From a virus, in the IMG/VR virus record IMGVR_UViG_3300037137_002161, positions 1 to 38,240 of that record: a stretch of 38,240 nt of DNA, one strand, 5' to 3'. A program made the position numbers and the translations under genes. Below are positions 9,258-35,025 of the stretch, one piece after another. How positions within the stretch are numbered: the stretch's first letter is position 1; every line of letters begins with the position of its first letter. The notes beneath the pieces were generated by a model that worked only from the letters and a program-made list of their open reading frames with translations, made no database searches and was not told the origin of the DNA.

Positions 9258-9273
9258 GCTCGCGACCTCCCTC

Positions 9274-9555: not shown

Positions 9556-9576
9556 CTAACCCTCCCGCCCCGCACC

Positions 9577-9903: not shown

Positions 9904-9915
9904 TCCGCCCTCCTG

Positions 9916-14021: not shown

Positions 14022-14024
14022 GGG

Positions 14025-19121: not shown

Positions 19122-19137
19122 GCTGGTCTCCTCGAGC

Positions 19138-19160
19138 GGGCGCGGCACCAGGCCGCGCCC
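19138..19160 (-). terminator. 9-bp perfect hairpin after the capsid gene
   Basis: GGGCGCGGC and GCCGCGCCC pair perfectly around a five-base loop. It lies about 49 bases after the capsid stop and before the next gene on the transcribed strand. No T-tract follows, so it may act as an mRNA stabiliser or partial attenuator that keeps capsid message abundant rather than as a full terminator. Confidence 0.45.
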
Positions 19161-19208
19161 GCGGTTCGTGCTTCGCAGTTCGCTATCCAGCTCTCAGCTC
19201 AGGCCGGT

Positions 19209-22080: not shown

Positions 22081-23747
22081 CTCAGCCTCCCCTGCCCGTT
22101 GAGTGCCGCCCGCTCGGCGATCGCCGCGGGGATGTCCAGCGCGTTGGCGCTCGCATCGGCGACCGTCGTGCCGGTGTCGGCGGCCTCGGCCGCGGCCGCG
22201 CCCGCCCCGCCGGCCGCGCCCTTGGGCGCCACGCGCGGCGGCGTGATGTCGATCCCGAGCCGGATCGCCTCGTCCTGCTCGGCCTTGAGCTGCTCGGCGA
22301 TCTCGAAGAAGTCGCGCCCCTTCTTCGCCAGCACCTGCTGGCGCGAGATCAGCCCCGCGTTGATGTCGACCGAGTCGGCCTCGCTGTCCTTCAGGGGGTC
22401 GGGCGAGTCGAAGCTCCTCGCCGCGTATTTCACCTCGAGGAACTTCCGGAAGTCGCGCGAGTCGAGCACCAGGCGCCCCGACAGCAGCGCGCAGTCGAGC
22501 CACTCGGCGTAGATGCGCCGGTAGAACACGTCGCGGAACCGGTTCTGCAGCGTCTCCCAGGTGTCGCGCTCGATCGTCAGGCCCATGCGCGCGCTCGAGT
22601 AGTTGACGCTCTCGAGGTCGTTGCCGAGCGAGTTATAGCTGCAGTCGAGCCCGGTCGAGACGGTGCGCAGCGCGCCCTTGACGAACGCGCCGTAGGCGAC
22701 GTTCGGGTGATGCGGGTCGAAGGTCGCGAGCTCGTAGCCGGGTGGCAGGGTCTCGAAGCTGCCGGGGTTCGCCTCCATCGAGATCTCGTTGTTCACGTCG
22801 GGGGTGAACTCGCCAGATTCGCCGACCTTGAGCTGGAAAAATCCCATTTTGGAGGCGGCAAGGCGTGCGCCGACGAGTTCGCCCTCGATGTAGCCATCGA
22901 GCATCTTGAGCGGCAGCATGATGCAGGCGAACCAGGACGTGCCGCGCGTCTGGTTGCACCGTTCCGGGTCGTAGAGGTGGATCACCTGCTCGGCCGGGAC
23001 GCGGATATGGTTGCGCGGGCCTCCCATCGCGGTGTAGCTCGCCGGGTGGTCCCACATCCAGAACGCCACCGGGCGGCCATACTGGTTGATCTCGACCCCC
23101 ATGCGGATCTCGTTCTCGCCGCCCGAGGGTGAGAGCCGGTTCATGCGCTCATCGATCTGGTCCGGGTCGATGGCATCCAGCGCGAAGCGGTAGGGGTTGT
23201 CGGGGAAGCCCGGCCACAGGCGCACGAACGCCTCGCCGTCGCAGGCCCAGGCCTTGATGGTCTGGTGCTCAAACGCCACGCGCGAGAGCCGCCCGTCGAT
23301 CGTGACGCAGCTGCTCCAGTCCTCCCAGGCGTCGTCGATCTTCTGGTTCAGCATCTTGTTCAGCTTCCCGCTGTTGTCGCGCACCTGCGGGTCGACGTCG
23401 ATGCCGTTCGGGCCCACCACGTTGATCGCCAGCATGGTGAGGAAGTGGCGGGCATAGGCGTTGTTGCGGCGCAGGTCGCGGGCCCGCGCCCGGATCCGCC
23501 GGTTGGTCCAGCGCAGCTCGTCGTCCGGGGTCAACAGCGAGATCGCCCAGTCGGCGGTCAGCCGGTTGATCTCGCTCCCGCGGTAGGCGTCGCGCTTCAT
23601 CAGCAGCGCCTTCACGCGCTTGGCGTCGAGCGCGCGCTGCTCGATCCCGCGCCGGGTCGAGTCGGCGCACGAGAGCGCCGCGCTCTCGTAGGCGCTCAGA
23701 CGTCGCACCATTGGGGTCTCGACCGCCACCGACTCGAGCGCGGTCAT
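22077..23747 (-). CDS. Portal protein, lambda family
   Basis: 556 residues from ATG 23747, which overlaps the upstream stop as TGATG. Typical lambda-family portal features: RARARDLRRNNAYARHFLTM at about residues 85-105, INVVGPNGIDVDPQV, HLYDPERCNQTRGTSWFACI and the CSYNSLGNDLESVNYSSARM block. The portal is the dodecameric ring through which the terminase pumps DNA. A Gly/Ala-rich disordered tail ends the protein. Earlier in-frame codons exist upstream but overlap the previous gene and look antisense. Confidence 0.92.
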   Translation of the reverse strand: MTALESVAVETPMVRRLSAYESAALSCADSTRRGIEQRALDAKRVKALLMKRDAYRGSEINRLTADWAISLLTPDDELRWTNRRIRARARDLRRNNAYARHFLTMLAINVVGPNGIDVDPQVRDNSGKLNKMLNQKIDDAWEDWSSCVTIDGRLSRVAFEHQTIKAWACDGEAFVRLWPGFPDNPYRFALDAIDPDQIDERMNRLSPSGGENEIRMGVEINQYGRPVAFWMWDHPASYTAMGGPRNHIRVPAEQVIHLYDPERCNQTRGTSWFACIMLPLKMLDGYIEGELVGARLAASKMGFFQLKVGESGEFTPDVNNEISMEANPGSFETLPPGYELATFDPHHPNVAYGAFVKGALRTVSTGLDCSYNSLGNDLESVNYSSARMGLTIERDTWETLQNRFRDVFYRRIYAEWLDCALLSGRLVLDSRDFRKFLEVKYAARSFDSPDPLKDSEADSVDINAGLISRQQVLAKKGRDFFEIAEQLKAEQDEAIRLGIDITPPRVAPKGAAGGAGAAAAEAADTGTTVADASANALDIPAAIAERAALNGQGRLR

Positions 23748-24349
23748 CACAGCGCCGGCCCCGCCGCCGGCGGCACGTCGCGCGAGCCGGTCTCGCTCTG
23801 GACCCCGGTGAAGGTGGCGAGCACCTTCGGCCCCATCTGGCCGGGGAACTTGTTGCGCTGGATCTTGTCGATCATCCGCGACCGCTCGGCCCACAGCTCC
23901 TTGCGCGGCACCCTCGTCAGCGAGCGGTTGCCGATCTGGTAGTGCTCGACGTCGGCGGTGATGCGCCCGGTCAGCACCCCCTCGATCGCCAGCAGCATCT
24001 TCTCCTCGAACGCCTGGAAATCGCCGGCCTGGGCGCTGCCGACGTTGGGGAGGATCGTGACCGTGCCGCTGGCCGCGACGTAGTCCTTGTTATTCGCGAC
24101 GTCGTGGACGATCTCCTTCCAGGTGTGGATCCCGGCCAGCAGCGCGGCGGTGGCGGCGGAGGAGAGCGCGAAGGCGAAGGCGCCGCTGACCACGGTGGCC
24201 GCGACGTCGAGCGAGCTGCGGCCGCGGACGTACAGCTTGGCGGTCCAGGCGCCACCGACCGCCGGGTAGGAGGCGAAGGTGCGCGAGTACTCGACGGTGG
24301 TGCCGGAGGCGAACGAGTCCGGCATGGCGGTCAGGACGGGTGCCGACAT
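23747..24349 (-). CDS. Head-associated protein before the portal
   Basis: 200 residues. N-terminal two-thirds is beta-rich (GGAWTAKLYVRGRSSLDVAA, AGIHTWKEIVHDVANN). The C-terminal third (FQAFEEKMLLAIEGVLTGRI, VEHYQIGNRSLTRVPRKELW) looks like the small GpW-type head-tail joining unit that commonly precedes the portal. It could therefore be a GpW-like domain carried at the end of a larger protein. Its ATG at 24349 has only a weak ribosome site. Confidence 0.55.
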   Translation of the reverse strand: MSAPVLTAMPDSFASGTTVEYSRTFASYPAVGGAWTAKLYVRGRSSLDVAATVVSGAFAFALSSAATAALLAGIHTWKEIVHDVANNKDYVAASGTVTILPNVGSAQAGDFQAFEEKMLLAIEGVLTGRITADVEHYQIGNRSLTRVPRKELWAERSRMIDKIQRNKFPGQMGPKVLATFTGVQSETGSRDVPPAAGPAL

Positions 24350-24405: not shown

Positions 24406-24436
24406 GGCGCCGGTCGGATTCCCTCCGACCGGCGCC
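24406..24436 (-). terminator. Perfect 13-bp hairpin ending the accessory block
   Basis: GGCGCCGGTCGGA and TCCGACCGGCGCC pair perfectly around a five-base loop. It lies between the last accessory gene (stop 24495) and the head operon (start 24349). No T-tract follows, so termination efficiency is uncertain; a protein-binding or RNA-processing site is an alternative. Confidence 0.6.
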
Positions 24437-24494: not shown

Positions 24495-24722
24495 TCATGA
24501 GATCCACCCCGGGCGCCCGAGCGACCGCTCGCGCCGGATCCGCAGGCAGTTCGAGCAGCGGTCCATACCGGGTGCTCCGGCGCCGAACCGCTCCGAGACC
24601 ATCGCGCCGCATAGCGCGCGCGGCCACTCGGGCTTGAGCACCAGGTGGGCGAGCGGTGGCTTGAGGTCGTGGTCCCTCGTGACCGTGGACGTGGCCTCAG
24701 CATCCCGAACGTGGGCGCTCAT
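24495..24722 (-). CDS. Small Cys-containing protein
   Basis: 75 residues. HLVLKPEWPRALCGAMVSER and DRCSNCLRIRRE give a Leu-Cys-Gly then CxxC pattern that recurs in tiny phage and bacterial proteins (a histidine followed by ALCG and a CxxC). Likely one zinc site. Starts as ATGA overlap. Last gene of the accessory block. Function unknown. Confidence 0.55.
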   Translation of the reverse strand: MSAHVRDAEATSTVTRDHDLKPPLAHLVLKPEWPRALCGAMVSERFGAGAPGMDRCSNCLRIRRERSLGRPGWIS

Positions 24723-24958
24723 GATAGGAAGTCCCGGACCAGCCAGCGCCCATCGGCCAGGGTGGTCGTGGCGACCGCGCGCGGCGTCCGGGTGGATCCA
24801 CCGCGGGATCTGCGGCCGGTCCAGGCCTCCATGGCCTGGCCGATCTCGCGGTGCAAGTGCGGCGATGGGCGACGGCGATATTGCTCGAGCAGATGCCGCA
24901 GACACTCCTGCGGATCTCCGAGGTGGCGTTCGAGCGCGCGCAGCGAGGCGAGGTTCAT
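24719..24958 (-). CDS. Small helical hypothetical protein
   Basis: 79 residues from ATG 24958, chosen because it overlaps the upstream stop as ATGA; another ATG lies 12 bases earlier. A helical N-terminus (LASLRALERHLGDPQECLRH) and basic middle. No family recognised. Confidence 0.5.
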   Translation of the reverse strand: MNLASLRALERHLGDPQECLRHLLEQYRRRPSPHLHREIGQAMEAWTGRRSRGGSTRTPRAVATTTLADGRWLVRDFLS

Positions 24959-25185
24959 GCCGGCCGCCATTCCTTACCATCCAGCGAGGTCTCGATGAAC
25001 CCGACGATCAGGGCCGGATCGGTTTCGGTGGAGCCGCCGCAGGCTAGGCAGTGCATCTCGAGGTCGATGAAGCGCGGATCCTCGCGTTCGATCCTCCAGG
25101 AGAACACAGTCGCGCAGACCAGGCACTTCGACAATCCGCTCAGGGCCCGAACGCGGACGTGCATCACGAGGTCGGAGCGCGCCAT
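24955..25185 (-). CDS. Small zinc-ribbon-like protein
   Basis: 76 residues. CLVC (about residue 21) and CLAC (about residue 46) lie on beta-hairpins (LSKCLVCATVFSWRI; IDLEMHCLACGGS), a zinc-ribbon arrangement. Starts in a TGATG overlap with the preceding secreted protein gene. Function unknown. Confidence 0.58.
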   Translation of the reverse strand: MARSDLVMHVRVRALSGLSKCLVCATVFSWRIEREDPRFIDLEMHCLACGGSTETDPALIVGFIETSLDGKEWRPA

Positions 25186-25676
25186 CAGCGGATCACCACG
25201 ATGCGCTGCACGCCGGAGGCGTGGCGCTCGAAGTAGACCCCGGGCGCGAGCGGAGGCTGGACCCGGCGCCCGGAGAGGTCGTAGAGCCGCGACGGTCCGG
25301 ACTCGAGCGGCGGCGGTCCACGCGGGGCCTCAAGCGCCCCCCCATGGAGCAGCACCACGTTCGAGCCGCAGGACCGGTTGCCGGCCCGGTCGCTCGTGAC
25401 CACCTGGACCTGTCCACCGGTGGTATCGGCGTCCGGAATCGCGACGCTGCAGGGTTCTCCCTCCAGGCCGCGCACCCCCAGCGCCCGCGCCACGTAGGAC
25501 TGCGGGTGCGCGTAGCTCTGGACCCACACGAAGGCCGAGTCGAGGTCCGAGAGCAGGAAGGAGCCGCGATCGCAGACGAAGGGCCAGGTCACGGAGCGCC
25601 CGACGCTGTCCACGGCGGCGTTCGAGTCCGGTAGGGTGAAGCTGACGACGATGGCCAGCGCGATCGCGGCGATCAA
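25185..25676 (-). CDS. Secreted protein with type-IX-secretion-like C-terminal tail
   Basis: 163 residues. The best start is TTG 25676; the frame is closed just upstream by the stop of the preceding gene, in the same frame. The N-terminus is a hydrophobic export-like stretch (IAAIALAIVVSFTLP) with a possible cleavage after SNA. The middle is beta-rich with Cys pairs (FVCDRG, EPCSVAIPDADTT, NRSCGSNVVLLHG) and reads like an Ig/fibronectin-like domain (VQVVTSDRAGN). The last ~35 residues (SRLYDLSGRRVQPPLAPGVY, then FERHASGVQRIVVIR) match the consensus of type A sorting domains of type IX secretion: YDxxGRxV, a loop, GxYFxR, xxGxxRxVVxR. This predicts secretion and surface attachment in a host with that system. 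A cargo protein carried by a phage with this tail is unusual. Confidence 0.7.
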   Translation of the reverse strand: MIAAIALAIVVSFTLPDSNAAVDSVGRSVTWPFVCDRGSFLLSDLDSAFVWVQSYAHPQSYVARALGVRGLEGEPCSVAIPDADTTGGQVQVVTSDRAGNRSCGSNVVLLHGGALEAPRGPPPLESGPSRLYDLSGRRVQPPLAPGVYFERHASGVQRIVVIR

Positions 25677-25688
25677 GCCTGGTCCCGG

Positions 25689-25979
25689 TCATGCGGCGGT
25701 CTCCGCATCTTCGACCCTCGGGTCCTTGAAGATCGGGATGAGCGGCGGGAGCAGCTCGAGCGCCTCGCGCAGGCAGTGCTCGCAGCCGCACCTCAGCTCA
25801 CCGCCCTCGAACGCCTGGCTCCGCACCAGGCACTCGATCCTCCCACGCAGGACGTTGAGCCGAACATACAGCACCTCGAGGTCGCGCGGGACGTTGACCG
25901 GCGCCAGCGGGCCGGCGGTGCCGCACGAGATCAGCGACTCGATCAGGCCGGTGCTGGCGAGCAACACGCGCAGCCCCAT
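25689..25979 (-). CDS. Small hypothetical protein with Cys motif
   Basis: 96 residues. Hydrophobic N-terminus (LRVLLASTGLIESLISCG), helix rich in Leu/Arg (VLYVRLNVLRGRIECLV) and the Cys cluster RCGCEHCLREALELLPP. ATG overlaps the upstream stop (TGATG). Function unknown. Confidence 0.5.
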   Translation of the reverse strand: MGLRVLLASTGLIESLISCGTAGPLAPVNVPRDLEVLYVRLNVLRGRIECLVRSQAFEGGELRCGCEHCLREALELLPPLIPIFKDPRVEDAETAA

Positions 25980-26251
25980 CAGGATCCGCCCGCGCCGGCG
26001 GCCATCGCCAGCGACTGCTGCTCGAGCCGAGCCGCGATCGCGAGCCCGTGCCGGTAGCCCTTGACGAAGTCAGCGAGCAGCACCGGCGAGTGCTCGTAGT
26101 CCATCTCGGCGATCCGCACGCGCTCCCAGGCGCGGCGATCCGCCCCGAGCTCGTAGCCGCGCTCCCAGGCGCGGACCCGCGCGCCGATCGCCGCGGGGTT
26201 GCGGTAGTGCCGCGGCCAGCCCTGGCCGGGGTGCGTCGGGGTGCGGCTCAC
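25979..26251 (-). CDS. Small hypothetical protein
   Basis: 90 residues from GTG 26251 in a GTGA overlap. Contains GARVRAWERGYELGADRRAW and VKGYRHGLAIAARLEQQSLA. A compact, mostly helical protein without recognised domain. Similar WERGYxxG patterns occur in phage accessory proteins. Confidence 0.5.
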   Translation of the reverse strand: MSRTPTHPGQGWPRHYRNPAAIGARVRAWERGYELGADRRAWERVRIAEMDYEHSPVLLADFVKGYRHGLAIAARLEQQSLAMAAGAGGS

Positions 26252-26415
26252 GCGAACTTCCCGCGCCGGCGCCGTGCCGTCCGGGCGCGCGCGCGGCCGC
26301 CGCGGCGCGCGATCTCGACCCGCTGCGCCAGGGTCAGGCTCCGGGCGCGCGCCCGCCCGCCCCGCGGGCCCCCGCGCTTGCCCATCAGCGAGGCCGCCTG
26401 GTTGATCTTCCTCAC
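26248..26415 (-). CDS. Tiny Arg-rich protein
   Basis: 55 residues from GTG 26415 (GTGA overlap). Contains RGGRARAR twice flanking LTLAQRVEIAR. Short proteins with ARAxxLxxxxRxEIAxxxxxAR patterns are common in phages and plasmids and may bind DNA or RNA. Function unknown. Confidence 0.5.
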   Translation of the reverse strand: MRKINQAASLMGKRGGPRGGRARARSLTLAQRVEIARRGGRARARTARRRRGKFA

Positions 26416-26879
26416 GTCGCTCCTCCCAGCTCGAGCTCGAGGTTCCGCTTCTTCGCCCTGCGGGTCGCGGCCGCGTTGCGCTGGTGGTGCGGGGCATCAT
26501 AGCGCAGGTGGCAGCGCGGGCAGGCGGCGTACAGGTTCTCGGCACCGCAGTTGCCCGGGTCGTGGTCGCGGTGCGCCACGGTCAGGACGACGCGCCGCCC
26601 GCGGGCCCAGCGCGGCGCCTCGCCCTGGCGCTCCTCGCAGCGGCGCTGGACCGTGATCGCGCCCGCGCCGCCGCAGCTCTCGCAGCCCTCGCGCCGCCCC
26701 TCGGCCAGGCAGTTCGGGCAGGGCGCCGGCAGCGGCGGGTGCAGGCCGCACTCGCCGACGCACTCGCAGCGGCCGCCCGAGCGGAGGCGGATCCGGTGCG
26801 AGACCTCCGGCCAGTTGGCCGGGTAGCGCGCCATGCGCGCGCGCAGGCGCTGGCGGGACTCCTCCGAGCGGCGGCTCAC
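26412..26879 (-). CDS. HNH endonuclease with Cys-rich insertion
   Basis: 155 residues from GTG 26879 (GTGA overlap). C-terminal HNH core: LTVAHRDHDPGNCGAENLYA, then CPRCHLRYDAPHH and NAAATRRAKK, with the expected His-Asp-His and CxxC zinc-binding pairs. Before it, residues about 45-80 carry CPNC and CESCGGAGA plus RRCEER. The CxxCxGxG element resembles the zinc repeat of DnaJ. This extra Cys-rich stretch appears inserted between the usual GRCEC...ECGLH start and the nuclease core. HNH enzymes near terminase can assist packaging; here it lies mid-accessory-block. Confidence 0.75.
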   Translation of the reverse strand: MSRRSEESRQRLRARMARYPANWPEVSHRIRLRSGGRCECVGECGLHPPLPAPCPNCLAEGRREGCESCGGAGAITVQRRCEERQGEAPRWARGRRVVLTVAHRDHDPGNCGAENLYAACPRCHLRYDAPHHQRNAAATRRAKKRNLELELGGAT

Positions 26880-27115
26880 GTCTCGGGGAGCGCGGCGATC
26901 TGGGCCCGCGTCAGGTCGATCCGCGTGAAGCGCAGCTCGACCGAGCCGCCGTCCTCGAGCTCGTCGAGGTAGGCCTGCACCCGCTCCCCGACGACCAGGA
27001 AGCGATGCGCCCGCTGGTCGGCGCCGGCCGACTCCACCCAGATCACGCCCTCGACCTCGCCGTCCGGGCAGTCCAGGCTGATCGTGACGTACCTGCGCGC
27101 CGGGTCGTCGTTCAT
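26876..27115 (-). CDS. Small acidic hypothetical protein
   Basis: 79 residues, beta-rich start (RYVTISLDCPDGEVEGVIWV) and helical end. Begins as ATGA overlap with the preceding gene and overlaps the following HNH gene. No domain recognised. Confidence 0.5.
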   Translation of the reverse strand: MNDDPARRYVTISLDCPDGEVEGVIWVESAGADQRAHRFLVVGERVQAYLDELEDGGSVELRFTRIDLTRAQIAALPET

Positions 27116-27504
27116 GGGGTCCAGTGCAGCTCGTAGGTGCAGATCGGGGCGAGGTTTCGGGGCGCGTGGTGCTGCAGCGCCCGGACCGTCTCCTGGCCGA
27201 GGATGCCGTCAATCTCGACGCCAATGGTCCGCTGCAGCAGCTGGATCGCGCCGGCAACGCCCAGATGGGGCGCAACGTCGCCGGTCGGCTGGCCCGCGCC
27301 CTCGTCCTCCTGCGGGGTGTTCATCCAGAGCGCCAGGCCGGCCAGGAACGCCGGCATCCGGTGGTTGAGCGCCATGATCTCCAGCTTGACCCGGTGCGAG
27401 ATCGAACCCGCGCCGCGGTCGTTCGGCCTCGGCTCCATCTCGATCGCGCTGATGCGCCGCAGCGCGTTGCGGAACACCGCCAGCGCCTGCTCGTCCCTGG
27501 TCAT
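27112..27504 (-). CDS. Hypothetical protein with peptidoglycan-binding-like helix
   Basis: 130 residues from ATG 27504 (ATGA overlap). The first two-thirds are helical with ALNHRMPAFLAGLALWMN. The C-terminal part, VAGAIQLLQRTIGVEIDGIL and GQETVRALQHHAP, has the LQxxxG(V)xxDGxxGxxTxxAL pattern of peptidoglycan-binding domains. Without a catalytic domain or signal peptide, a cell-wall role is unproven. Confidence 0.5.
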   Translation of the reverse strand: MTRDEQALAVFRNALRRISAIEMEPRPNDRGAGSISHRVKLEIMALNHRMPAFLAGLALWMNTPQEDEGAGQPTGDVAPHLGVAGAIQLLQRTIGVEIDGILGQETVRALQHHAPRNLAPICTYELHWTP

Positions 27505-27818
27505 GCGACCCTCCGGGTCTGGTTCTTGAGCTGCTCGATAATCTTTCGCGCCTCGAGCCCACGTCCGGCGAGGTCCGCCCAAGCCTGCCACTCGGAGTAG
27601 ATCGCGTCCTCCGCCTCCTGGAGCTCGCGCCGGTGCTGCAGCACGATCGAGGCCAGCAGGCGCCGCGCGAACGCTTCCGTCCGCTCGGCCAGCAGGCGCC
27701 GCGCGAACGCTTCCGTCCGCTCGTGGCCCGGATATCGCGCCGCGGGCGGCGCCGGCGGCGGGTCCGGCTTGCGTCCACTCGCGGGGAGCGCGGTCGGTTG
27801 CTTGCGGTTGCCGCTCAC
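27501..27818 (-). CDS. Hypothetical protein with 12-residue tandem duplication
   Basis: 105 residues from GTG 27818, chosen because it overlaps the micropeptide stop as GTGA; ATG 27830 is an alternative. A Pro-rich N-terminus (SGRKPDPPPAPPAARYPG) precedes RTEAFARRLLAE present twice in a row, encoded by an exact 36-bp duplication. Then a helical C-terminus (IVLQHRRELQEAEDAIYSEW). Function unknown. Confidence 0.5.
   Translation of the reverse strand: MSGNRKQPTALPASGRKPDPPPAPPAARYPGHERTEAFARRLLAERTEAFARRLLASIVLQHRRELQEAEDAIYSEWQAWADLAGRGLEARKIIEQLKNQTRRVA
27652..27723. repeat. Exact 36-bp tandem duplication, 2 copies
   Basis: Copies at 27652-27687 and 27688-27723 are identical. 36 is a multiple of three, so the reading frame is kept. 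Recent origin is implied by the perfect identity. Confidence 0.9.
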
Positions 27819-27928
27819 CGCGCCCACCATAGCAGGTCAAGCGCGCCCTTCCACTGGATGAGCCACCACAGCGGGATGATCTCCCCGCAGATCACCATCG
27901 GGTTCCACTGGTCTCCTCCGTCGTCCAT
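27815..27928 (-). CDS. Trp-rich 37-residue micropeptide
   Basis: 37 residues from ATG 27928 with a strong Shine-Dalgarno (AGGAGGAG). Sequence contains IPLWWLIQWK and LLWWAR: six Trp in 37 residues, with charged residues at both ends. The middle could lie in or on a membrane. The stop overlaps the GTG of the next gene. It is preceded by a strongly structured ~70-base stretch. Function unknown. Confidence 0.5.
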   Translation of the reverse strand: MDDGGDQWNPMVICGEIIPLWWLIQWKGALDLLWWAR

Positions 27929-27950
27929 CGTCTCCTCCTGTTTGAAGCGA

Positions 27951-28017
27951 GCGCCGGCGTGCGGGGCAGGACGGACGTCGTCCCGCACCTTGCCCGCCCG
28001 TCCGACGTGGCCGGCGC
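27951..28017 (-). other. Structured non-coding stretch before the micropeptide
   Basis: Outer arms GCGCCGGC (27951-27958) and GCCGGCGC (28010-28017) pair perfectly. Inside, GTGCGGG/CCCGCAC and GGACG/CGTCC arms can form further helices. It fills most of the gap between two small genes and sits ~30 bases before the micropeptide start. A regulatory RNA element or read-through attenuator is possible. Confidence 0.4.
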
Positions 28018-28025
28018 CCGCTAGG

Positions 28026-28277
28026 TCAGTGCTTCGGGGCCGGGTTTGAGACCGGGCCGCCGGCGGTCGCGGTGCTCTGCTGCGCCTGGAACGCCCCCGC
28101 CCGGATCAACTTGACCCGCGGCTCGTCGAACCACTCGGACTTCGGCTCGCCCTTGTCGCCGAGCGACTGCGAGTTGATCAGGATGTGCACGCACCCGTTC
28201 AGGTAGACCGCGCGTCCCGTCACGATGCCCGAGAAGCCGGAGATCACGTCCTTCGCCCTGTCGCCGAGCTTCACCAT
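28026..28277 (-). CDS. Small conserved-looking phage protein
   Basis: 83 residues. Begins KLGDRAKDVISGFSGIVTGR followed by AVYLNGCVHILI and EWFDEPRVKLI. The GDxxxDxxSGFxGIVTGRxxYLNGC pattern is a widespread phage accessory family of unknown function, probably an SH3-like barrel. Follows the helical 28288-28623 gene. Confidence 0.65.
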   Translation of the reverse strand: MVKLGDRAKDVISGFSGIVTGRAVYLNGCVHILINSQSLGDKGEPKSEWFDEPRVKLIRAGAFQAQQSTATAGGPVSNPAPKH

Positions 28278-28287
28278 CTGCTGCCCC

Positions 28288-28623
28288 CTATCGGATGACC
28301 CGGGCCGCGCCCGAATCGAACGCGGAGCGCAGCCGGCGCGTCTCGAAGTAGCCCGCGAGGTCCGGCTCCTGCTCCATGATGAGCCGCGCGTAGCGGCTGC
28401 GCCAGTTGTTATTGAGCCTGAAGAAGTCGCCGCGCGTCTCCACCCACCGCTGCCAGCGCATCACCTCCCACAGGTGGCCGATCCCGACGTGCCGGCCGGC
28501 CGTGAAGTACCCGCGCGCGAGCCGCACCAGCGTCGCGTAGACCTGGGGGTTCGCGGCGTGGAAGGCCTCGAAGGCGCGCTGCAGGCGGTCGATGAGCCAC
28601 AGCTGCGGCAGGTGGCCGGTCAT
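28288..28623 (-). CDS. Conserved phage helical protein
   Basis: 111 residues from ATG 28623 (ATGA overlap). Contains FHAANPQVYATLVRLARGYF, HLWEVMRWQRWVETRG and FRLNNNWRSRYARLIMEQEP. The FKLNNNxxSRYARLIMEQEP element and preceding NPxVYxxLVxLA segment form a recognisable family shared by many phages. Function unknown; position here is within the accessory block. Confidence 0.65.
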   Translation of the reverse strand: MTGHLPQLWLIDRLQRAFEAFHAANPQVYATLVRLARGYFTAGRHVGIGHLWEVMRWQRWVETRGDFFRLNNNWRSRYARLIMEQEPDLAGYFETRRLRSAFDSGAARVIR

Positions 28624-28898
28624 TCGAACCGCTCCCACGTCTCGGTAGCCCGCCGGACCTCTATCCACTGCTCGACCACCTTGTCGGCCACGATCCGCGC
28701 GCTCACTCGCATGAAGCGCACCGTCGGGTCGAGCACCGCGCGCCCGCACAGGTGGGCGAACTCCGGCAGCGCCGGCTGACTGAGCTCGACGGCCGGGATC
28801 GGCGCCGGCGACTCCGCGGTGCGGGTCGCGACCTCGTGCTCGAGCTGCTCGAGGTAGGCGCGCATCTGGCGGTCGCTGAAGTCGAGGCGCCGACTCAC
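28620..28898 (-). CDS. Small hypothetical protein
   Basis: 92 residues from GTG 28898 (GTGA overlap). Starts SRRLDFSDRQMRAYLEQLEH and ends with a helix (FMRVSARIVADKVVEQWIEV). No recognised domain. Confidence 0.5.
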   Translation of the reverse strand: MSRRLDFSDRQMRAYLEQLEHEVATRTAESPAPIPAVELSQPALPEFAHLCGRAVLDPTVRFMRVSARIVADKVVEQWIEVRRATETWERFE

Positions 28899-29149
28899 GC
28901 GTCCCCCGCCGGCGCCGGGGCGTCGGTGAGCTCGATCGTGAAGCACTTGCCGATCGGGAACTGCGCCAGGTCCTCGGGCCGGACCTGCCAGACCATCGGG
29001 CCGCCGTGGAGGCGGTCGCCGAGGCTCCCCACCACCTGGAAGTGCACGCGCGGGTGGGGCGCGACCATCTGGCCGGCGTGCTCCTGAAGCGCGACTGGGC
29101 CGGCGTCGAGGTGCGAGACCCAGACCCGCTGCGTGAGCAGGATCCTCAC
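28895..29149 (-). CDS. Small protein, paralogue of the 29358 gene
   Basis: 84 residues from GTG 29149 (GTGA overlap). Beta-rich: ILLTQRVWVSHLDAG, then HFQVVGSLGDRLHGG and LAQFPIGKCFTIELTDA. The ending QFPIGKCFTIEL mirrors EFPLGRAFDLEL in the 29358-29591 protein, so the two are probably duplicated copies of one fold. Function unknown. Confidence 0.55.
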   Translation of the reverse strand: MRILLTQRVWVSHLDAGPVALQEHAGQMVAPHPRVHFQVVGSLGDRLHGGPMVWQVRPEDLAQFPIGKCFTIELTDAPAPAGDA

Positions 29150-29361
29150 CGATGCCTCGCACACGGGGGCGCGGGTGTCCCCATGAAGTCGACGAGCTTC
29201 ATCCACCGCGGACCCAGCACCAGCGCCGCCAGGCCGGCCCGGCACTGCGGGCACTCGATGAGTGAGATCGCGAGCGCGGCATCGCGGACAGTGGCGAACC
29301 CCAGCGTGAGCAGGAGCCGCTGGACCCAGCCGAGTGCGCGGCCGCGGAGGAAGACGATCAC
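29146..29361 (-). CDS. Small hypothetical protein with CxxC
   Basis: 71 residues from GTG 29361 (GTGA overlap). Hydrophobic helices (VQRLLLTLGFATVRDA) then ECPQCRAGLAALVLGPRW and a terminal Cys-His region (PPCARHR). One possible zinc site. It separates two paralogous genes. Function unknown. Confidence 0.5.
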   Translation of the reverse strand: MIVFLRGRALGWVQRLLLTLGFATVRDAALAISLIECPQCRAGLAALVLGPRWMKLVDFMGTPAPPCARHR

Positions 29362-29591
29362 GGTCCGACCTCCGTGGCGTGCAGCTCGAGGTCGAACGCG
29401 CGGCCCAGCGGGAACTCGGCCACGCCCGGCAGGGTCAGGTCGAAGCGCACCGGGCGGCTCGAGAGTCCGGCGACCGACAGGGTGCTCTCGAAGCTGACCT
29501 CGACCTCAGTGGGATCGAGCTTGACCGTGCCGAGCGCCCAGCTGCGTATTGAGTGGCCGGTCACCATCACGTTGAACCGGAGCGGCTCCAT
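29358..29591 (-). CDS. Small beta-rich protein, paralogue of the 28895 gene
   Basis: 77 residues. Beta-rich (FNVMVTGHSIRSWALG, VEVSFESTLSVAG) ending in PGVAEFPLGRAFDLELHATE. Starts in the stop of the ParB-domain gene. The C-terminal PxxxxFPxGxxFxxEL pattern is shared with the 28895-29149 protein. Function unknown. Confidence 0.55.
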   Translation of the reverse strand: MEPLRFNVMVTGHSIRSWALGTVKLDPTEVEVSFESTLSVAGLSSRPVRFDLTLPGVAEFPLGRAFDLELHATEVGP

Positions 29592-31039
29592 CAGCGCCGC
29601 CCTTTCTTCCGGCGCGCCGCCTTCTTCACCGGACGTTTTGCAGACGTCTGCGCCGCCGGGTCTCGCAGCAGCCCGGCCAGGTTGATCCCCAGCGCGCGCG
29701 CGTGCGACCGGAAGTCCACGTAGGCGTGCTCCGATCGGATCTCGTGCTGGATCCGCCCGTAGGCCAGGTGGCGCACCAGGTCCTCGGCGGTCCGCCCGCG
29801 CGGGACCTCGTCAGACCGGTAGGCGCCGCGCAGCAGGACCCCCGCCAGCGGCCCCTGGGCGCCCGCGGGAGCCTTGAGGACCGCCGCCCGGGTCGCCTTG
29901 AGGATCCTGGGCGTGGCGGCCTTCCAGCGCGCCCAGGCGACCGCCAGGGCCTTGCGCCGCAGCTCCCACGGCAACTGGTCCGGCCCCGCCGGCTTCGCCA
30001 CTGCCCCGCCGGCCTTCTTCCTCGCCGTCTTCGCGGCCCGCGGGAAGTGGATCTCGCAGGTCCGGTCCACGCACACCTGGAAGGCGTCGCCGCGGCCCGG
30101 GCCGACCGCGATCACGCCGAGCTCCGACTTCTCGCAGGTCCTGGACTTGACGCGCTTGCCGGACCGCGAGTGCTCGGCCAGCTCGCCGTCCGCCCGGCGC
30201 CACGACATCGGCCCGTGGGTCCGCTCCTTGCCCCGCGCGCCCTCCGGCACGTGGTAGTCGTGGGTGATGAGCACCACCTTGCGCTTCTCGGTGCTCGCGT
30301 CCTGGAGCGCCACCGCGGTCTCCGGGAACAGCAGCGGGTCGGCCGCCGTCGGCTCGAACCTCACATTGTCGTCGATCCACGACTCGAGCTCCCGCACGCT
30401 GCGCGGTTTGACCGACCTCTTCGCCTCGTCCTCCTCGAACGGATCCTGGTGCAGGTGCTCGACCGCGAAGATCCCGCCCTCCCGGCCGTTACCGATCCGG
30501 TCGGTGGCGAGCGCGCGCGCCTGGTCGGCGGGCTTCAAGCGCGCCAGCAGGATCGCGTGCCCGGCGGTGAACTTGCCGGCCCAGAACAGCGCCTTCGCCT
30601 CCTTGGTCAGCGCCAGCAGCTTGACCCGGTCGTAGACGTACTTGACCGAGCGGCCCACCCGCGCCGCGATCTTGGCGACGTCGTAGCCGGGCTGGCGCGA
30701 GAGGTCGTGGTAGCCCTGGGCCTCCTCGAGCGGGTGGAGGTCGGCGCGCTGCAGATTCTCGACCAGCTGGAGCTCGAGCGCCTCCTGGTCGGTGAGCTTC
30801 GAGATCGTGGCCGGGATGGTCTCGAGCCCAGCGGCCTTCGCGGCGCTCCAGCGCCGGTGGCCGCACACGATGACGTAGCGGTCCTCCTTCTTGGGGTGCG
30901 GGCGCACCAGGATCGGCTGCAGGATCCCGTGGGCGCGGACGCTCGCCGCGAGCTCCTCGATCCCGCAGTCGCTGACGTCCAGGCGGCGCGGGTTGGTCGC
31001 GGACGGTTCAAGCGCCGCCAGCGGCAGGTGCTCTCTCAT
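29591..31039 (-). CDS. ParB/RepB-type domain protein
   Basis: 482 residues. N-terminal ParB domain: ATNPRRLDVSDCGIEELAAS (about residues 14-33), ILVRPHPKKEDRYVIVCGHR (about 42-61) and QLVENLQRADLHPLEEAQGY, then a helix-turn-helix (VAKIAARVGRSVKYVYDRVK). The C-terminal 250 residues include CVDRTCEIHFP and a long basic tail (RPVKKAARRKKGRR). ParB domains bind CTP and DNA and act in partition or regulation. No ParA ATPase is seen in the window, so a solitary regulator or nuclease-type function is as likely as partition. The ATG lies inside the end of the upstream gene. Confidence 0.82.
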   Translation of the reverse strand: MREHLPLAALEPSATNPRRLDVSDCGIEELAASVRAHGILQPILVRPHPKKEDRYVIVCGHRRWSAAKAAGLETIPATISKLTDQEALELQLVENLQRADLHPLEEAQGYHDLSRQPGYDVAKIAARVGRSVKYVYDRVKLLALTKEAKALFWAGKFTAGHAILLARLKPADQARALATDRIGNGREGGIFAVEHLHQDPFEEDEAKRSVKPRSVRELESWIDDNVRFEPTAADPLLFPETAVALQDASTEKRKVVLITHDYHVPEGARGKERTHGPMSWRRADGELAEHSRSGKRVKSRTCEKSELGVIAVGPGRGDAFQVCVDRTCEIHFPRAAKTARKKAGGAVAKPAGPDQLPWELRRKALAVAWARWKAATPRILKATRAAVLKAPAGAQGPLAGVLLRGAYRSDEVPRGRTAEDLVRHLAYGRIQHEIRSEHAYVDFRSHARALGINLAGLLRDPAAQTSAKRPVKKAARRKKGRR

Positions 31040-31229
31040 GTCGGTCCTCTCCTCTCAGCGCGAGCCCACAGGCTCGGCATCGTGTGACGTGGTCCGGGTT
31101 GACGAAGATCAACCGGCAATGCATGACGCGGAACCGCCCGCAGGCTGACTGCTCGAGCCCCTCGACCTTGCGAAACGCGTGGGCCGCCGCCGCCGCCCGC
31201 CCCTCCAGCTTGGCCCACCGGACGCTCAC
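31008..31229 (-). CDS. Small CxxC protein
   Basis: 73 residues from GTG 31229 (GTGA overlap). Sequence VRWAKLEGRAAAAAHAFRKV, then GRFRVMHCRLIFVNPDHVTR and CRACGLALRGEDRH. The C and CxxC could bind one zinc. Overlaps the start of the ParB-domain gene by 32 bases. Confidence 0.5.
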   Translation of the reverse strand: MSVRWAKLEGRAAAAAHAFRKVEGLEQSACGRFRVMHCRLIFVNPDHVTRCRACGLALRGEDRHERAPAAGGA

Positions 31230-31480
31230 CGGCCGGCCACGAGCTCCGCGCGGATCTCGCGCCAGGTCTCGCGCAGCTCGGCCAGCGCCTTGAGGCGCGC
31301 GAACTCCGGGTGGTGCAGTCTCTCCCACCGCTCCATGAGGTCGACCAGCCGCACCAGGCGCTTCTGCGCGTGCGATCGCTGCAGCCGCGCGATCGTCCGC
31401 TTGAGCTCGCGGATGGTCGCGCGTCGCGCCACCCGCCGCGCGGCTGCGGTGATGCGGAGCCGCTTCTTCTTTGGAGCCAT
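31226..31480 (-). CDS. Small basic coiled-coil protein
   Basis: 84 residues with a strong Shine-Dalgarno (GGAGGAGAG). Basic N-terminus (MAPKKKRLRITAAARRVARR) and a continuous helix (LVRLVDLMERWERLHHPEFA). Likely nucleic-acid-binding or dimeric, function unknown. Confidence 0.5.
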   Translation of the reverse strand: MAPKKKRLRITAAARRVARRATIRELKRTIARLQRSHAQKRLVRLVDLMERWERLHHPEFARLKALAELRETWREIRAELVAGR

Positions 31481-31521
31481 GCTCTCCTCCGATCTGTGAG
31501 CTGCGAGCGCGGCGGGGCGGC

Positions 31522-31538
31522 GTCCGCCCCTGCGATGG
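31522..31538 (-). other. Short GC hairpin
   Basis: GGGGCGG and CCGCCCC pair around three bases, in the 90-base gap before the 31226-31480 gene. No T-tract. Possibly an mRNA stabilising element. Confidence 0.3.
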
Positions 31539-31569
31539 TTTGGCGCCAACTCCGGACTCGGGCCTCCGG

Positions 31570-31752
31570 TTAGCCCCGCCGCCAGCACTGTGATCCGACA
31601 GGACGATGGTCACGCCGGAGGCCGGCGCGGCTGCGGTTGCCCGTGGAGCCGTCCTGCCGGGAAACGTCTTCGAGAACTCGGCCCCCTCCAGCGAACACGC
31701 CGGCGCTGGTAGTCCGGACGATCACGTACCGCTTCGTCTTCTTCGTTGCCAT
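31570..31752 (-). CDS. Short protein with family-like N-terminus, possibly truncated
   Basis: 60 residues from ATG 31752 with GAGGAG upstream. RYVIVRTTSAGVFAG at residues 8-22 matches the start of a small phage and bacterial family (RYVIVRTxSAGVFAG...). The remaining 35 residues do not look like that family, and the Arg/Gly-rich sequence suggests degeneration or a frameshift. No better alternative frame was found. Confidence 0.4.
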   Translation of the reverse strand: MATKKTKRYVIVRTTSAGVFAGGGRVLEDVSRQDGSTGNRSRAGLRRDHRPVGSQCWRRG

Positions 31753-31771
31753 TTCGATCTCCTCGTCGGGG

Positions 31772-31873
31772 TTAGTTCGCTTCCGCTCGCTGAGCCGTCC
31801 TGCAATCGGCACCTGCTCGGCCCATATACTGGATCGCCCCATCTCGCTTGTGAACCATGAGCAGGATGCGCAT
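31772..31873 (-). CDS. Possible 33-residue protein
   Basis: A 33-codon frame begins in a TGATG overlap with the upstream membrane protein and ends in TAA. Sequence starts MRILLMVHKRDGAIQYMGRA. The coupled start supports translation; nothing else is known. Confidence 0.4.
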   Translation of the reverse strand: MRILLMVHKRDGAIQYMGRAGADCRTAQRAEAN

Positions 31874-32079
31874 CAGGACCAGCGATCCAGCCGGCGCTCA
31901 TGGCGCGGCGGCTCGGCGAAGACGCCCTCGAGCGCCTTCGCGAACGACAGGAACGCGGCGCCGGCGAACAGCCAGAAGGTCAGCTGGCCGAGCCGCCCCC
32001 CGACCTGCACGCTCGCCACGGCGAGGAAGGCGCATAGCCCCGCGACCACCATAAAACCGATCCGGTAGATCCCCCTCAC
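31873..32079 (-). CDS. Small two-span membrane protein
   Basis: 68 residues from GTG 32079 (GTGA overlap). Two hydrophobic segments (IGFMVVAGLCAFLAVASV and LGQLTFWLFAGAAFLSFA) separated by a short turn, then a charged tail. Topology is holin-like but it is far from the lysis genes; a membrane-directed accessory role is possible. Confidence 0.55.
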   Translation of the reverse strand: MRGIYRIGFMVVAGLCAFLAVASVQVGGRLGQLTFWLFAGAAFLSFAKALEGVFAEPPRHERRLDRWS

Positions 32080-32354
32080 GACTTGGTCCCTTTCCTCTGG
32101 CAGATGCGCCGCTCCAGCTCGGAGACGGCGAAGTGGCGCAGCTCGGCGGTCGCCCAGCGGCGCGCCGCGGTCTTCGACAGATCGTGGATCGCGGCGTTCA
32201 GCTGGTCGAAGTGGGGCTCCGATTCGGGGTCGCGCTCGACCCGCAGCGACTCGCTCTCGGCCAGGTGCGACAGCAGCATCAGGCCGCGCGCCAGCGACTT
32301 CGACTTCGACTTCCGGTCGTGCTCCTCCTTGGCCCACTGTTCGACGTCAAGCAT
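32076..32354 (-). CDS. Small charged helical protein
   Basis: 92 residues with a helical, highly charged sequence (VEQWAKEEHDRKSKSKSLAR, then AARRWATAELRHFAVSELER). Starts eight bases inside the preceding gene's end. Function unknown. Confidence 0.5.
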   Translation of the reverse strand: MLDVEQWAKEEHDRKSKSKSLARGLMLLSHLAESESLRVERDPESEPHFDQLNAAIHDLSKTAARRWATAELRHFAVSELERRICQRKGTKS

Positions 32355-32559
32355 GGGCGGTCCTTTCGACGCGGATCCGCCGCCAAGCCGGGTGCTGCTC
32401 GATCGCCTCGAGCCAGAAGCCCCGAGGCGAGATCCTGCGCAGGAACATGTGTGGCCGGACGCCCTGGAAGCGTCCGCCAGCGAGGACGGTCGTAGGATGA
32501 TCGTTCGCCGACTGCTTTATCACCAGGAATCGCTCGACCTGACCGGATTCGATCGTCAT
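32347..32559 (-). CDS. Small hypothetical protein
   Basis: 70 residues from ATG 32559 (ATGA overlap). Contains ERFLVIKQSANDHPTTVLAG and LRRISPRGFWLEAIEQHPAW, a beta-rich pattern. No domain recognised. Confidence 0.5.
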   Translation of the reverse strand: MTIESGQVERFLVIKQSANDHPTTVLAGGRFQGVRPHMFLRRISPRGFWLEAIEQHPAWRRIRVERTAHA

Positions 32560-32765
32560 GAGCGACTCCCGCGCCGGCGCAGCTTGCGCTCCGCGGCCAC
32601 CTGGGCGGCCACGGCTCGCGCGAAGATCAGGTTCAGGTCGACCGGGAACCGCCGGCGTCGGCCCTTCTCGCGGAACCACAGCATGCCGGCCGGGTCCATG
32701 GTGATGGCGACCTCGCCGCGCAGCAGCTGGGCCGAGCGCGTGATCGGTTTCGTGAGCTTGGTCAC
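32556..32765 (-). CDS. Small hypothetical protein
   Basis: 69 residues from GTG 32765 (GTGA overlap). LTKPITRSAQLLRGEVAITM and WFREKGRRRRFPVDLNLIFA. The middle, xxxITMDxxGMLWFREKGRRR, resembles short phage proteins that carry a beta-hairpin plus basic patch. Function unknown. Confidence 0.5.
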   Translation of the reverse strand: MTKLTKPITRSAQLLRGEVAITMDPAGMLWFREKGRRRRFPVDLNLIFARAVAAQVAAERKLRRRGSRS

Positions 32766-32980
32766 GAGGCCGCCCGACGCGGGCGGTTCGCGTCGTGCTC
32801 CGCCTCGATCATCAGTAGCGCCTCGCGGCAGGCCTCGAGGTGCGAGGGCGGGCCGGGCAGCGGCCACTCGGCCACCAGCTCGGCGCGGGCGGCGCCGAGC
32901 GCGCCGCGCTTAAAAGTGAGCCGCGCCGCGCGCCTCGTGCGGCGGTAGCTGGTCAGGTCCTCGAGTTCCTCGGGCTTCAT
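32762..32980 (-). CDS. First accessory gene, small helical protein
   Basis: 72 residues. Begins MKPEELEDLTSYRRTRRAAR with a strong Shine-Dalgarno (GGAGGCGAG). The C-terminus is helical and Ala-rich. It is the first gene downstream of the promoter candidate, so it heads the accessory operon. Function unknown. Confidence 0.5.
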   Translation of the reverse strand: MKPEELEDLTSYRRTRRAARLTFKRGALGAARAELVAEWPLPGPPSHLEACREALLMIEAEHDANRPRRAAS

Positions 32981-33034: not shown

Positions 33035-33063
33035 AGTATCGACCCACCAGCTAGAACGATCAA
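33035..33063 (-). promoter_or_regulatory. Sigma-70-type promoter candidate for accessory block
   Basis: Minus strand: TTGATC (33063-33058), exactly 17 bases, GATACT (33040-33035). Both hexamers match the consensus at four positions. It lies in the 122-base gap after the large terminase gene and before the first accessory gene, and no gene is displaced. A small GGGGA/TCCCC hairpin follows in the leader (33007-33020). Confidence 0.5.
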
Positions 33064-33102
33064 GCTGTTTTTTCGCCTAGGGAATCGCGGTCGTGACGCC
33101 CC

Positions 33103-35025
33103 TCACCAGTTGGTGGCCCAGCCGCGCCGCTTGCGCTTGGCGGGCAGCGGCGCGGGTGCGGCGGGTGGTGGACCGCCCTCGCCGGGCGCCGGAGCGAGCA
33201 CCATCTGCGCGAACTTGTCGGCGCGGCTCTGCAGCACGCGCATCAGCGGCGGCCCCAGGATATGCAGCGCCGCCAGGCAGTAGACCTCGAGGTCGAGCGC
33301 CTCGTTCCGGCGGTGGATCTTGATCCACTGCCGCACCGTGCCCTTGCCCTTGACATATTTCCAGACCGCGCGCTCGGCGGTCAGCTGGTCGACGTACTCC
33401 TCGTCGATCCACTCGGGAAAGTGCATGTAGCCGGGGCCGGGCGTGGCGATCCGCAGCCGCGAGTAGATCACGTCCTTGGCGGTGTCGGTGCAGAGCGTCC
33501 ACAGCTTCACCCGGTAGCGGTTGCGGGTGCTGGCGCGCGAGACGATCTCGCGCCCGCGCTCGCTGCCGCCCTTGACCGGGAACACCTTGTGCTCGCGCCG
33601 CACGCTGCAGAACCGGTAGACCACCTCGGTGTGGTGCCCGCTGTCGATCGTGACGCACTCGATGCGGAGCTTCTGGCCGCTCTCGTGCAGGAACTCGCCC
33701 TTCAAGAACTGGTCGAGGTCCGGCCACGGCGACTTGGGGCCGCTCTCCTGCCCCGGGTCGCCGTGGAACTGGGCGAGCGCGATCAGCCACGACTGCTCGC
33801 CGGCGCCGTAGCCCTTGACGGCGCACTCGAGCCGATCGGCCTGGACGTCGACCGAGGCGACCAGCGCGCCGACCCCGACCGGTACCTCGCCGGCGTAGCG
33901 CCGCGCGCGCGCCAGGACGCTGCCGGCGCCGACCCCCTCGCCGAGGTCCTCCCAGGTCTCCCCCAGCACGGTGTTGACCCAGGTCTTCAGCATCACCGCG
34001 TCGCTCTTGACCTTCAGGAACTCGTCGACGCACTCGGCCCACGACCGCCAGCCGATCGGCGAGTAGAGGCTCGAGAGGTGGTAGCCGCGGGTCTTGCCGT
34101 CGCCCACCGCGGTCGGGCGCCACGCGCCGCGCGCCAGCATCTGGGTCTTGTGGTGCTCGTCGATCAGCCCGTCGCAGCTGGCGCAGCGCAGCCGGGCGGT
34201 CTCGGGCCGGTGCTCGTCGAAGTGGATGTGGTGGTGCCGCCCCTCCTCGCCGCTCCAGCCGCCGATCCGCCACTGGATCCAGTCCATCATTCCGCACAGC
34301 GGGCAGGGGACAAAGTAGCGCCGCTGGTCGCTGGCCAGGTACTCGCGCTCGATCCGCGACAGGTTCTTGAGGGTGGGGCTCGAAACCAGGAGGATCTTAC
34401 GGCGTGGGAAGTTGCTGGTGCGCTTCTCGGCCAGCGCCACCGGGTCGCCCTGGCCGTCGACGTCGCCGGGGTAATCGTCGACCTCGTCGCACAACAGGAA
34501 GCGCGCCGGCATCGACCGCAGGCCGGCGCCGGAGTTGGCGCCGGTCAGGATGAACAGGCCGCCCTGGAACTCCTTGACGAAGGTGGTGTTGCCGGCGTCC
34601 CGCGAGCGCGCCGCGCGCACTCGCTCGCGCAGCACCGGCGTCAACTCGATCATCGGTGCGATCCGCTGCTTCGAGACCTTGCTCGCCGCGTCGATGGTCG
34701 GATAGACGATCAGCACCGGCGCCGGCGCGCGGTGGATGATGTAGCCGAGAAAGTTATTGATGATCTCGGTGCCCCCCAGCTGCGCGCCCTTCATGAACAC
34801 GATGCGCCGCACCGGGTCGTGGGGCGAGAGGCTGTCCATGATCTCGCGCGCGTAGGGGATGCGGTCGGTCCGCCACGGGCCCACCGCGGCGCTGGTCTTG
34901 GAGTCCAGCACCCGGAACTCGTCGGCCCACTCGCTGATGGTCAGCAGCGGCTCGAGCTCGAGCCCGTCCGAGGCCGCGGCGCCGACCAGGTCCTCAGCGA
35001 CCGCCAGGTTTGCCGGGCTTGCCAT
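33103..35025 (-). CDS. Terminase large subunit, GpA family
   Basis: 640 residues. ATPase motifs: Walker-A-like VFMKGAQLGGTE (about 76-87), Walker B FLLCDEVDDY (Asp180, Glu181) and the coupling motif SSPT (about 215-218). Two CxxC pairs (CPLCG and CASCDG) may bind zinc as in GpA proteins. The C-terminal nuclease domain follows (SVDVQADRLECAVKGYGAGE, then VTIDSGHHTEVVYRFC). The protein powers DNA packaging and cuts concatemers with the small subunit. ATG 35025 lies 32 bases inside the small-subunit gene. The family usually packages from cos sites, which would give fixed ends, but none was recognised here. Confidence 0.92.
   Translation of the reverse strand: MASPANLAVAEDLVGAAASDGLELEPLLTISEWADEFRVLDSKTSAAVGPWRTDRIPYAREIMDSLSPHDPVRRIVFMKGAQLGGTEIINNFLGYIIHRAPAPVLIVYPTIDAASKVSKQRIAPMIELTPVLRERVRAARSRDAGNTTFVKEFQGGLFILTGANSGAGLRSMPARFLLCDEVDDYPGDVDGQGDPVALAEKRTSNFPRRKILLVSSPTLKNLSRIEREYLASDQRRYFVPCPLCGMMDWIQWRIGGWSGEEGRHHHIHFDEHRPETARLRCASCDGLIDEHHKTQMLARGAWRPTAVGDGKTRGYHLSSLYSPIGWRSWAECVDEFLKVKSDAVMLKTWVNTVLGETWEDLGEGVGAGSVLARARRYAGEVPVGVGALVASVDVQADRLECAVKGYGAGEQSWLIALAQFHGDPGQESGPKSPWPDLDQFLKGEFLHESGQKLRIECVTIDSGHHTEVVYRFCSVRREHKVFPVKGGSERGREIVSRASTRNRYRVKLWTLCTDTAKDVIYSRLRIATPGPGYMHFPEWIDEEYVDQLTAERAVWKYVKGKGTVRQWIKIHRRNEALDLEVYCLAALHILGPPLMRVLQSRADKFAQMVLAPAPGEGGPPPAAPAPLPAKRKRRGWATNW

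What the first reader, a model, noticed from the sequence alone, without database searches (positions are those of the whole stretch)
24495..32980. 28-gene accessory block between terminase and portal
Lambda-type genomes place portal genes soon after the large terminase gene. Here about 8.5 kb of tiny coupled genes is inserted, preceded by a promoter candidate at 33035-33063 and closed by a perfect 13-bp hairpin at 24406-24436. It holds a ParB-domain protein, HNH nuclease, secreted protein, many CxxC proteins and several unknown families. It looks like a self-contained cargo or anti-defence island.
Basis: partly seen in the sequence, partly recalled or inferred. Interest (0 to 1): 0.7.

Follow-up and report, generated by a model that had tools for sequence, protein, structure and literature searches.

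The report
Swappable gene block beside phage packaging gene
Between its DNA-packaging gene and its portal gene this virus of bacteria carries about 25 small, fast-changing extra genes that appear to form their own transcription unit, a plug-in site for accessory genes; nothing shows yet that they act against host defences.

Summary
The block is real. On the minus strand, 8.5 kb of small genes (24 supported by codon usage, up to 28 plausible) lie between TerL and a gpW-like/portal pair. Portal lies within 1.5 kb of TerL in 134 of 142 relatives where both were found. Only the window's own TerL clade shows ~8 kb (window, G002, G003), with a broken-up contig (G061) also carrying a block. Other clade members have the portal inverted, displaced or adjacent. 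Contents turn over almost completely, down to single-gene gains between phages 97% identical in the TerL region. In G002, L003, L022, G061 and L253 the same promoter module recurs inside the block, often with hairpins; an exact motif scan of 2.9 million viral contigs hit only five records, all of this group. Best reading: a hypervariable accessory-gene locus run as a separate unit, with genes exchanged at repeated promoter/hairpin modules, resembling T4 'PeSL' cassettes. Anti-defence is not supported by any hit. New variant of a known kind.

The parts
33103..35025 (-). large terminase TerL (lambda gpA type), left anchor of the locus
   Evidence: 54-65% identity to clade relatives; tree
33035..33064 (-). 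promoter-like module CTTGATC-N17-GATACT, with upstream CGAAAA; start of the block's transcription unit
   Evidence: best site in the whole window with a model made from relatives only; same place in G002, L003, L022 and G061/L253
32762..32980 (-). first block gene, 72 aa, unknown
   Evidence: no family match
32556..32765 (-). 69 aa, unknown
32347..32559 (-). 70 aa, unknown; weak coding score
32076..32354 (-). 92 aa, unknown; short similarity to a gene in the block of G002 (weak)
31873..32079 (-). 68 aa, apparent membrane protein
   Evidence: hydrophobicity by eye
31570..31755 (-). 61 aa; N-terminus like DUF6948, below cut-off; probable remnant
   Evidence: E 0.0034
31226..31480 (-). 84 aa basic protein, unknown
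31011..31229 (-). 73 aa small CxxC protein, not called by codon usage
   Evidence: sequence; no PHROG
29591..31039 (-). ParB/Spo0J-like protein, 482 aa: ParB_N plus ParB HTH; GHRR and ENLQR motifs align with CTP-binding ParBs
29358..29591 (-). 77 aa, unknown
29146..29361 (-). 71 aa, CPQC motif, unknown
28895..29149 (-). 84 aa, unknown
28620..28898 (-). 92 aa, unknown
28288..28623 (-). 111 aa, phrog_13625, helical, widespread in unrelated phages, function unknown
28026..28277 (-). 83 aa, phrog_16275, function unknown
27815..27928 (-). 37 aa, unknown
27501..27830 (-). 109 aa with a perfect 36-bp tandem duplication (27651-27722)
27112..27504 (-). 130 aa; C-terminal peptidoglycan-binding piece, 44% identical over 43 aa to this phage's own endolysin (5099-5614)
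26876..27115 (-). 79 aa; C-terminus similar to G003 at 38.66 kb, outside G003's block
26412..26879 (-). HNH endonuclease, phrog_1571; 50% identical to G003 39.3 kb, outside G003's block
26248..26415 (-). 55 aa basic GGRARA protein
25979..26251 (-). 90 aa, unknown
25689..25979 (-). 96 aa; homologue at the matching place in G003's block (12013-12321)
25185..25676 (-). 163 aa, predicted secreted protein; C-terminus looks like a short sorting-tail motif (by eye only)
   Evidence: sequence; Por_Secre_tail model gave no hit in the window
24955..25185 (-). 76 aa, two CxxC pairs
24495..24722 (-). 75 aa last block gene, weak coding score (a longer frame starts at 24980)
24406..24436 (-). perfect 13-bp hairpin closing the block; no T run
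   Evidence: equivalent hairpins before gpW in G002, G003, G061
23747..24325 (-). gpW-like head-joining protein, start of the head genes
   Evidence: similarity to gpW-position genes of G002, G003, G008, G014, G016b
22077..23747 (-). portal protein, right anchor
   Evidence: 49% identity to G002/G003/G061 portals

Best explanation
The block is a hypervariable accessory-gene locus fixed between the packaging and head modules of this phage clade, and it is run as a separate transcription unit. Host-type RNA polymerase would start at the promoter module just after the TerL stop and stop at the hairpin before gpW, so the small genes are made apart from the head genes, most likely early in infection. 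New genes enter by recombination. In several relatives the same promoter module (with leader) and similar hairpins are repeated between genes, so an incoming gene lands behind a ready promoter, as with the promoter/stem-loop cassettes of T4-like phages. The window holds the compact form: one promoter, one closing hairpin, about 25 genes between them, including a ParB-like clamp and an HNH nuclease. Shown: position, turnover, recurrence of both borders, repetition of the promoter module in relatives. Inferred: promoter and terminator activity, early timing, recombination as the mechanism, and the role in adjusting infection to the host.
For: TerL-portal gap is 1.5 kb or less in 134 of 142 relatives; ~8 kb only in the window and its clade mates G002 and G003, in a TerL clade with SH-aLRT 100. 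Contents: among the block phages first examined only 3-4 window genes had any similarity, and HNH plus its neighbour sit elsewhere in G003. L003 and G002 (97% identical over TerL) lose homology right after the -10 of the promoter module; a G002 gene flanked by two copies of one hairpin is missing in L003, which has one copy. Promoter module: same spot in window, G002, L003, L022; leave-one-phage-out models find these as the best sites; 2-5 copies per block in L022, L003, G002, G061, L253, all on the block strand and none found elsewhere in those contigs. The exact motif hit 5 records in 2.9 million viral contigs, all this group, and none of 47 Eisenbacteria-phylum genomes. Hairpin before gpW in window, G002, G003, G061. 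Block genes shared by L003 and G002 are under purifying selection, dN/dS about 0.35 against 0.02 for TerL.
Against: No expression data. The window itself has a single, divergent copy of the module and no internal copies; G003 has a plain TTGACA-16-TAGTAT there, not this module. The window hairpin lacks a T run. Only four phages show the closing hairpin. Metagenome contigs may be misassembled near repeats. If the hairpin really terminates, late transcripts from TerL cannot reach the head genes without their own promoter or antitermination, and neither was found.
Confidence: 0.68

Rival explanations
1. Ordinary early/middle gene region that happens to lie between terminase and head genes after module rearrangement; no special gene-capture role.
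For: The TerL-portal junction is rearranged in the clade: portal and gpW inverted beside TerL in G008 and G016b, early genes convergent after TerL in G005, G006, G007 and G024a. HNH and its neighbour lie by replication genes in G003. DNA-metabolism genes occur in blocks: ParB, HNH, a topoisomerase-like gene in G003.
Against: Does not explain repeated promoter/hairpin modules and single-gene swaps confined to the block; window replication-type genes (RusA, initiator-like) lie elsewhere at 1102-2450.
Confidence: 0.4
2. Lysogenic-conversion or anti-phage/anti-defence cargo (moron or antiviral hotspot of the P2/P4 type).
For: Extra DNA between conserved genes with apparent own promoter and hairpin; a distantly related Eisenbacteria prophage carries 9.7 kb of glycosyltransferase/methyltransferase-like genes at the same junction.
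Against: PADLOC: only weak HNH/ZorE similarity and a domain hit for ParB among nine block proteins; no serine or tyrosine integrase in window, G002 or G003, though the records may be incomplete.
Confidence: 0.15
3. Assembly artefact joining two unrelated stretches.
For: Metagenome contig; perfect 36-bp and 21-bp tandem repeats.
Against: Same order with similar block length in independently assembled G002 and G003; same strand, same GC, overlapping genes.
Confidence: 0.03

Closest known systems
Promoter early stem-loop (PeSL) cassettes of hyperplastic regions in T4-like phages (Arbiol 2010, Comeau 2014; read here only through PMC4503421 and PMC3950731)
   Same: Promoter plus stem-loop repeated between small genes in a region of intense gene shuffling; same strand; genes behind modules differ between relatives
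   Different: Here in small high-GC lambda-type phages, at one spot between TerL and portal; different promoter sequence; the window has only one module
Conserved TATA-like plus inverted-repeat motif of haloarchaeal virus HGTV-1 (PMC3950731)
   Same: A motif with promoter-like part and inverted repeat precedes many ORFs of one genome region
   Different: Archaeal virus, larger genome, other location
Start-associated sequences of Cluster K mycobacteriophages (PMC3203893)
   Same: Short repeat upstream of many genes, about half with an inverted repeat, tied to genes of different families
   Different: Thought to act in translation initiation; no terminase-portal locus. phrog_13625 relatives do occur in TM4
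[quoted passage not shown]
   Same: Small locus of high turnover between two conserved genes
   Different: Those carry recognisable defence systems, 1-5 kb; none recognised here
Morons, e.g. SfIV (PMC3851460) and CSP3 (PMC10269572, gene between terminase subunits)
   Same: Extra genes between conserved genes with own transcription signals
   Different: About 25 genes instead of 1-3; GC not deviant; no lysogeny genes found

Membership tests
PeSL-type regulatory cassette array | composite promoter and stem-loop repeated several times between genes | tested here: not met
   Window: one promoter module and one closing hairpin, no internal copies. Met in relatives G002, G061, L253 and partly L003, L022
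PeSL-type regulatory cassette array | modules lie at boundaries of gene gain and loss | tested here: inconclusive
   Seen in relatives, L003 vs G002: homology ends right after the module; gene flanked by two hairpin copies absent in L003. The window has no near relative in which to test it
PeSL-type regulatory cassette array | promoter active early with host polymerase | not testable with these tools
   sigma-70-like spacing only
moron | extra DNA between genes adjacent in relatives | tested here: met
moron | own promoter and terminator | tested here: inconclusive
   comparative support for both signals; hairpin lacks T run
moron | composition unlike the rest of the phage | tested here: not met
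   GC 0.70-0.77 in the block, 0.65-0.74 elsewhere
moron | expressed in the lysogen | not testable with these tools
   no integrase found in the window
antiviral / anti-defence hotspot | high gene turnover between two conserved genes | tested here: met
antiviral / anti-defence hotspot | contains recognisable defence or counter-defence genes | tested here: inconclusive
   PADLOC on nine block proteins: weak HNH and ParB-domain similarity only; no counter-defence library at hand

The most novel reading that the evidence does not exclude
A clade of lambda-type phages, probably of Candidatus Eisenbacteria, has turned the TerL-portal junction into a dedicated gene-capture platform. A phage-specific promoter/leader module and hairpins act as recombination handles and as ready-made expression signals, so that single genes are swapped in and out of a separately transcribed unit lying inside the packaging/head gene cluster.
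Probability: 0.45. Interest if true: 0.62.

Novelty: new variant of a known kind. Interest (0 to 1): 0.5.

Why it matters
It gives a place where accessory genes of phages from a barely studied bacterial phylum can be collected simply by position and promoter motif, and a tractable case of modular gene exchange at regulatory repeats outside the T4-like phages. It also warns that TerL-portal adjacency is not a safe assumption when judging phage completeness or order.

Tried and rejected
Anti-defence: PADLOC gave nothing convincing. tRNA-Leu called on the plus strand inside a minus-strand gene: no Rfam match, rejected. Sigma-70 scan alone: no support. Structure of the 111-aa phrog_13625 protein: helical model, pLDDT 77.5, no usable fold match (Foldseek best E 2.1; VIA-align best Z 3.9, rmsd 6.7, 85 residues). 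ParB and portal used alone as IMG/VR queries found no confirmed relatives. Nucleotide search of phages: none. Sorting-tail reading of the secreted protein: the model found nothing in the window and the match in a host-like genome was weak. PeSL primary papers are not held.

Full report
What is there. The window is a 38,240-base IMG/VR virus record, 70% GC. Late genes run on the minus strand: methyltransferase, TerS, TerL (33103-35025), then small genes, then a gpW-like gene, portal, a protease-capsid fusion and tail genes. Codon usage supports 24 genes between 32980 and 24495, and four more short frames are plausible. Many neighbours overlap by 1-4 bases. GC does not differ from the rest, though codon fit is somewhat lower than elsewhere (0.257 against 0.341 per codon).

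Is the block extra? Using the window TerL and a TerL profile I fetched relatives from viral contigs and from bacterial genomes and measured the distance from TerL to portal. Of 142 relatives where a portal was found, 134 have it within 1.5 kb (median 0.7 kb). A TerL tree puts the window in a 20-member clade (SH-aLRT 100). Within it the junction is fluid. G002 and G003 have ~8 kb between TerL and portal, as the window does. L025 has the plain order. G008 and G016b have portal and gpW inverted next to TerL. G005, G006, G007 and G024a have a few small genes and then convergent early genes. Some clade members are in Candidatus Eisenbacteria assemblies, so that phylum is a likely but unproven host; others are in differently labelled bins.

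Contents. Family searches name ParB, HNH, two PHROGs of unknown function, and a peptidoglycan-binding piece that looks like a copy of part of the phage's own endolysin. The ParB keeps GHRR and ENLQR motifs that align with CTP-binding ParBs; no ParA was recognised by eye. Among relatives' blocks only the 96-aa gene at 25689-25979 (G003, matching place) and, weakly, the 92-aa gene at 32076-32354 (G002) recur; HNH and its neighbour occur in G003 outside its block. Other blocks carry an amidoligase, a gamma-glutamylcyclotransferase, DUF932, DUF2786 and a topoisomerase-like gene. L003 and G002, 97% identical around TerL, differ by insertion or loss of single genes inside the block. The genes they share are under purifying selection, though weaker than TerL. 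PADLOC gives no convincing defence gene among the nine block proteins tried.

Borders. Compared across phages it becomes strong. In window, G002, L003 and L022 a site CTTGnnC-N17-GATRMT starts 30-45 nt behind the TerL stop. A model made without the window ranks 33035-33064 first in the whole window; likewise L022's two sites and two of G002's three sites are ranked first and second when each phage is left out. An extended model gives the same answer for the window, score 10.1 against at most 9.1 in 20 shuffled genomes, one strand each. G003 has TTGACA-16-TAGTAT at the same place. The closing hairpin is a perfect 13-bp stem. Equivalent hairpins lie directly before gpW in G002 (11 bp), G003 (interrupted stem, followed by TTCTTTTT) and G061 (12 bp).

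Repeated modules. An exact scan of viral contigs for a stricter form of the motif returned five records: L022, L003, G002 and two new ones, L252 (G061) and L253, both with a TerL 81% identical to L003's. The window's own diverged site does not fit that stricter form. None of 47 genomes of the G016 phylum has it. G061 and L253 carry four and five copies, G002 three, L022 two, all on the block strand, 43-62 nt before a start codon, and none found elsewhere in the contigs read. The ~90-base promoter-leader unit is alike between phages although the genes behind it differ, and L003/G002 homology stops right behind it; one G002 gene sits between two copies of one hairpin sequence, of which L003 has only one.

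Reading. The simplest account is a separately transcribed, hypervariable accessory locus in which repeated promoter/hairpin modules give both expression signals and homology for exchange. That is how PeSL cassettes are described for T4-like phages (PMC4503421, PMC3950731 as secondary sources). The window does not itself show repeated modules, so I do not file it as a PeSL array; it works like one by position and by family. Transcription, timing and recombination are inferred.

Doubts. No expression data exist here; the window has a single diverged module; the hairpin lacks a T run; and if it terminates, the head genes need their own late promoter or antitermination, which I did not find. A plainer rival, an early-gene region moved by module rearrangement, is not excluded and could be true at the same time. 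Anti-defence cargo has no positive evidence.

Noticed in passing
L206 (G016:C795): Eisenbacteria element with serine recombinase, AlpA-like gene, primase-like gene, TerS and TerL followed by restriction-modification-like genes: looks like a PICI-type phage satellite carrying TerS-TerL.
   Followed up: partly
L233 (G016:C296), 7101-16391: Eisenbacteria prophage with 9.7 kb of glycosyltransferase/methyltransferase-like genes between TerL and portal, flanked by two gpW-like genes.
   Followed up: partly
L192/L193 (G008) and L208 (G016b): Portal and gpW inverted relative to TerL and capsid, directly after TerL, with a secreted fibronectin-like protein beside the portal.
   Followed up: partly
25185-25676: Predicted secreted protein whose C-terminus (LYDLSGRRV...GVYFER...RIVVIR) resembles a short sorting tail; Eisenbacteria genomes G016 and G024 each hold at least 150 Por_Secre_tail matches, but the model does not ring in the window.
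   Followed up: partly
27651-27722: Perfect 36-bp tandem duplication inside a block gene, adding 12 residues: recent change or assembly artefact.
   Followed up: no
36425-36489: 21-bp unit repeated three times perfectly inside the ParB-methyltransferase gene (LLAAALR repeats).
   Followed up: no
19136-19162: Perfect 11-bp hairpin directly after the capsid gene, similar in style to the block-closing hairpin.
   Followed up: no
31570-31755: N-terminal piece like DUF6948 that then loses similarity: likely truncated gene.
   Followed up: partly
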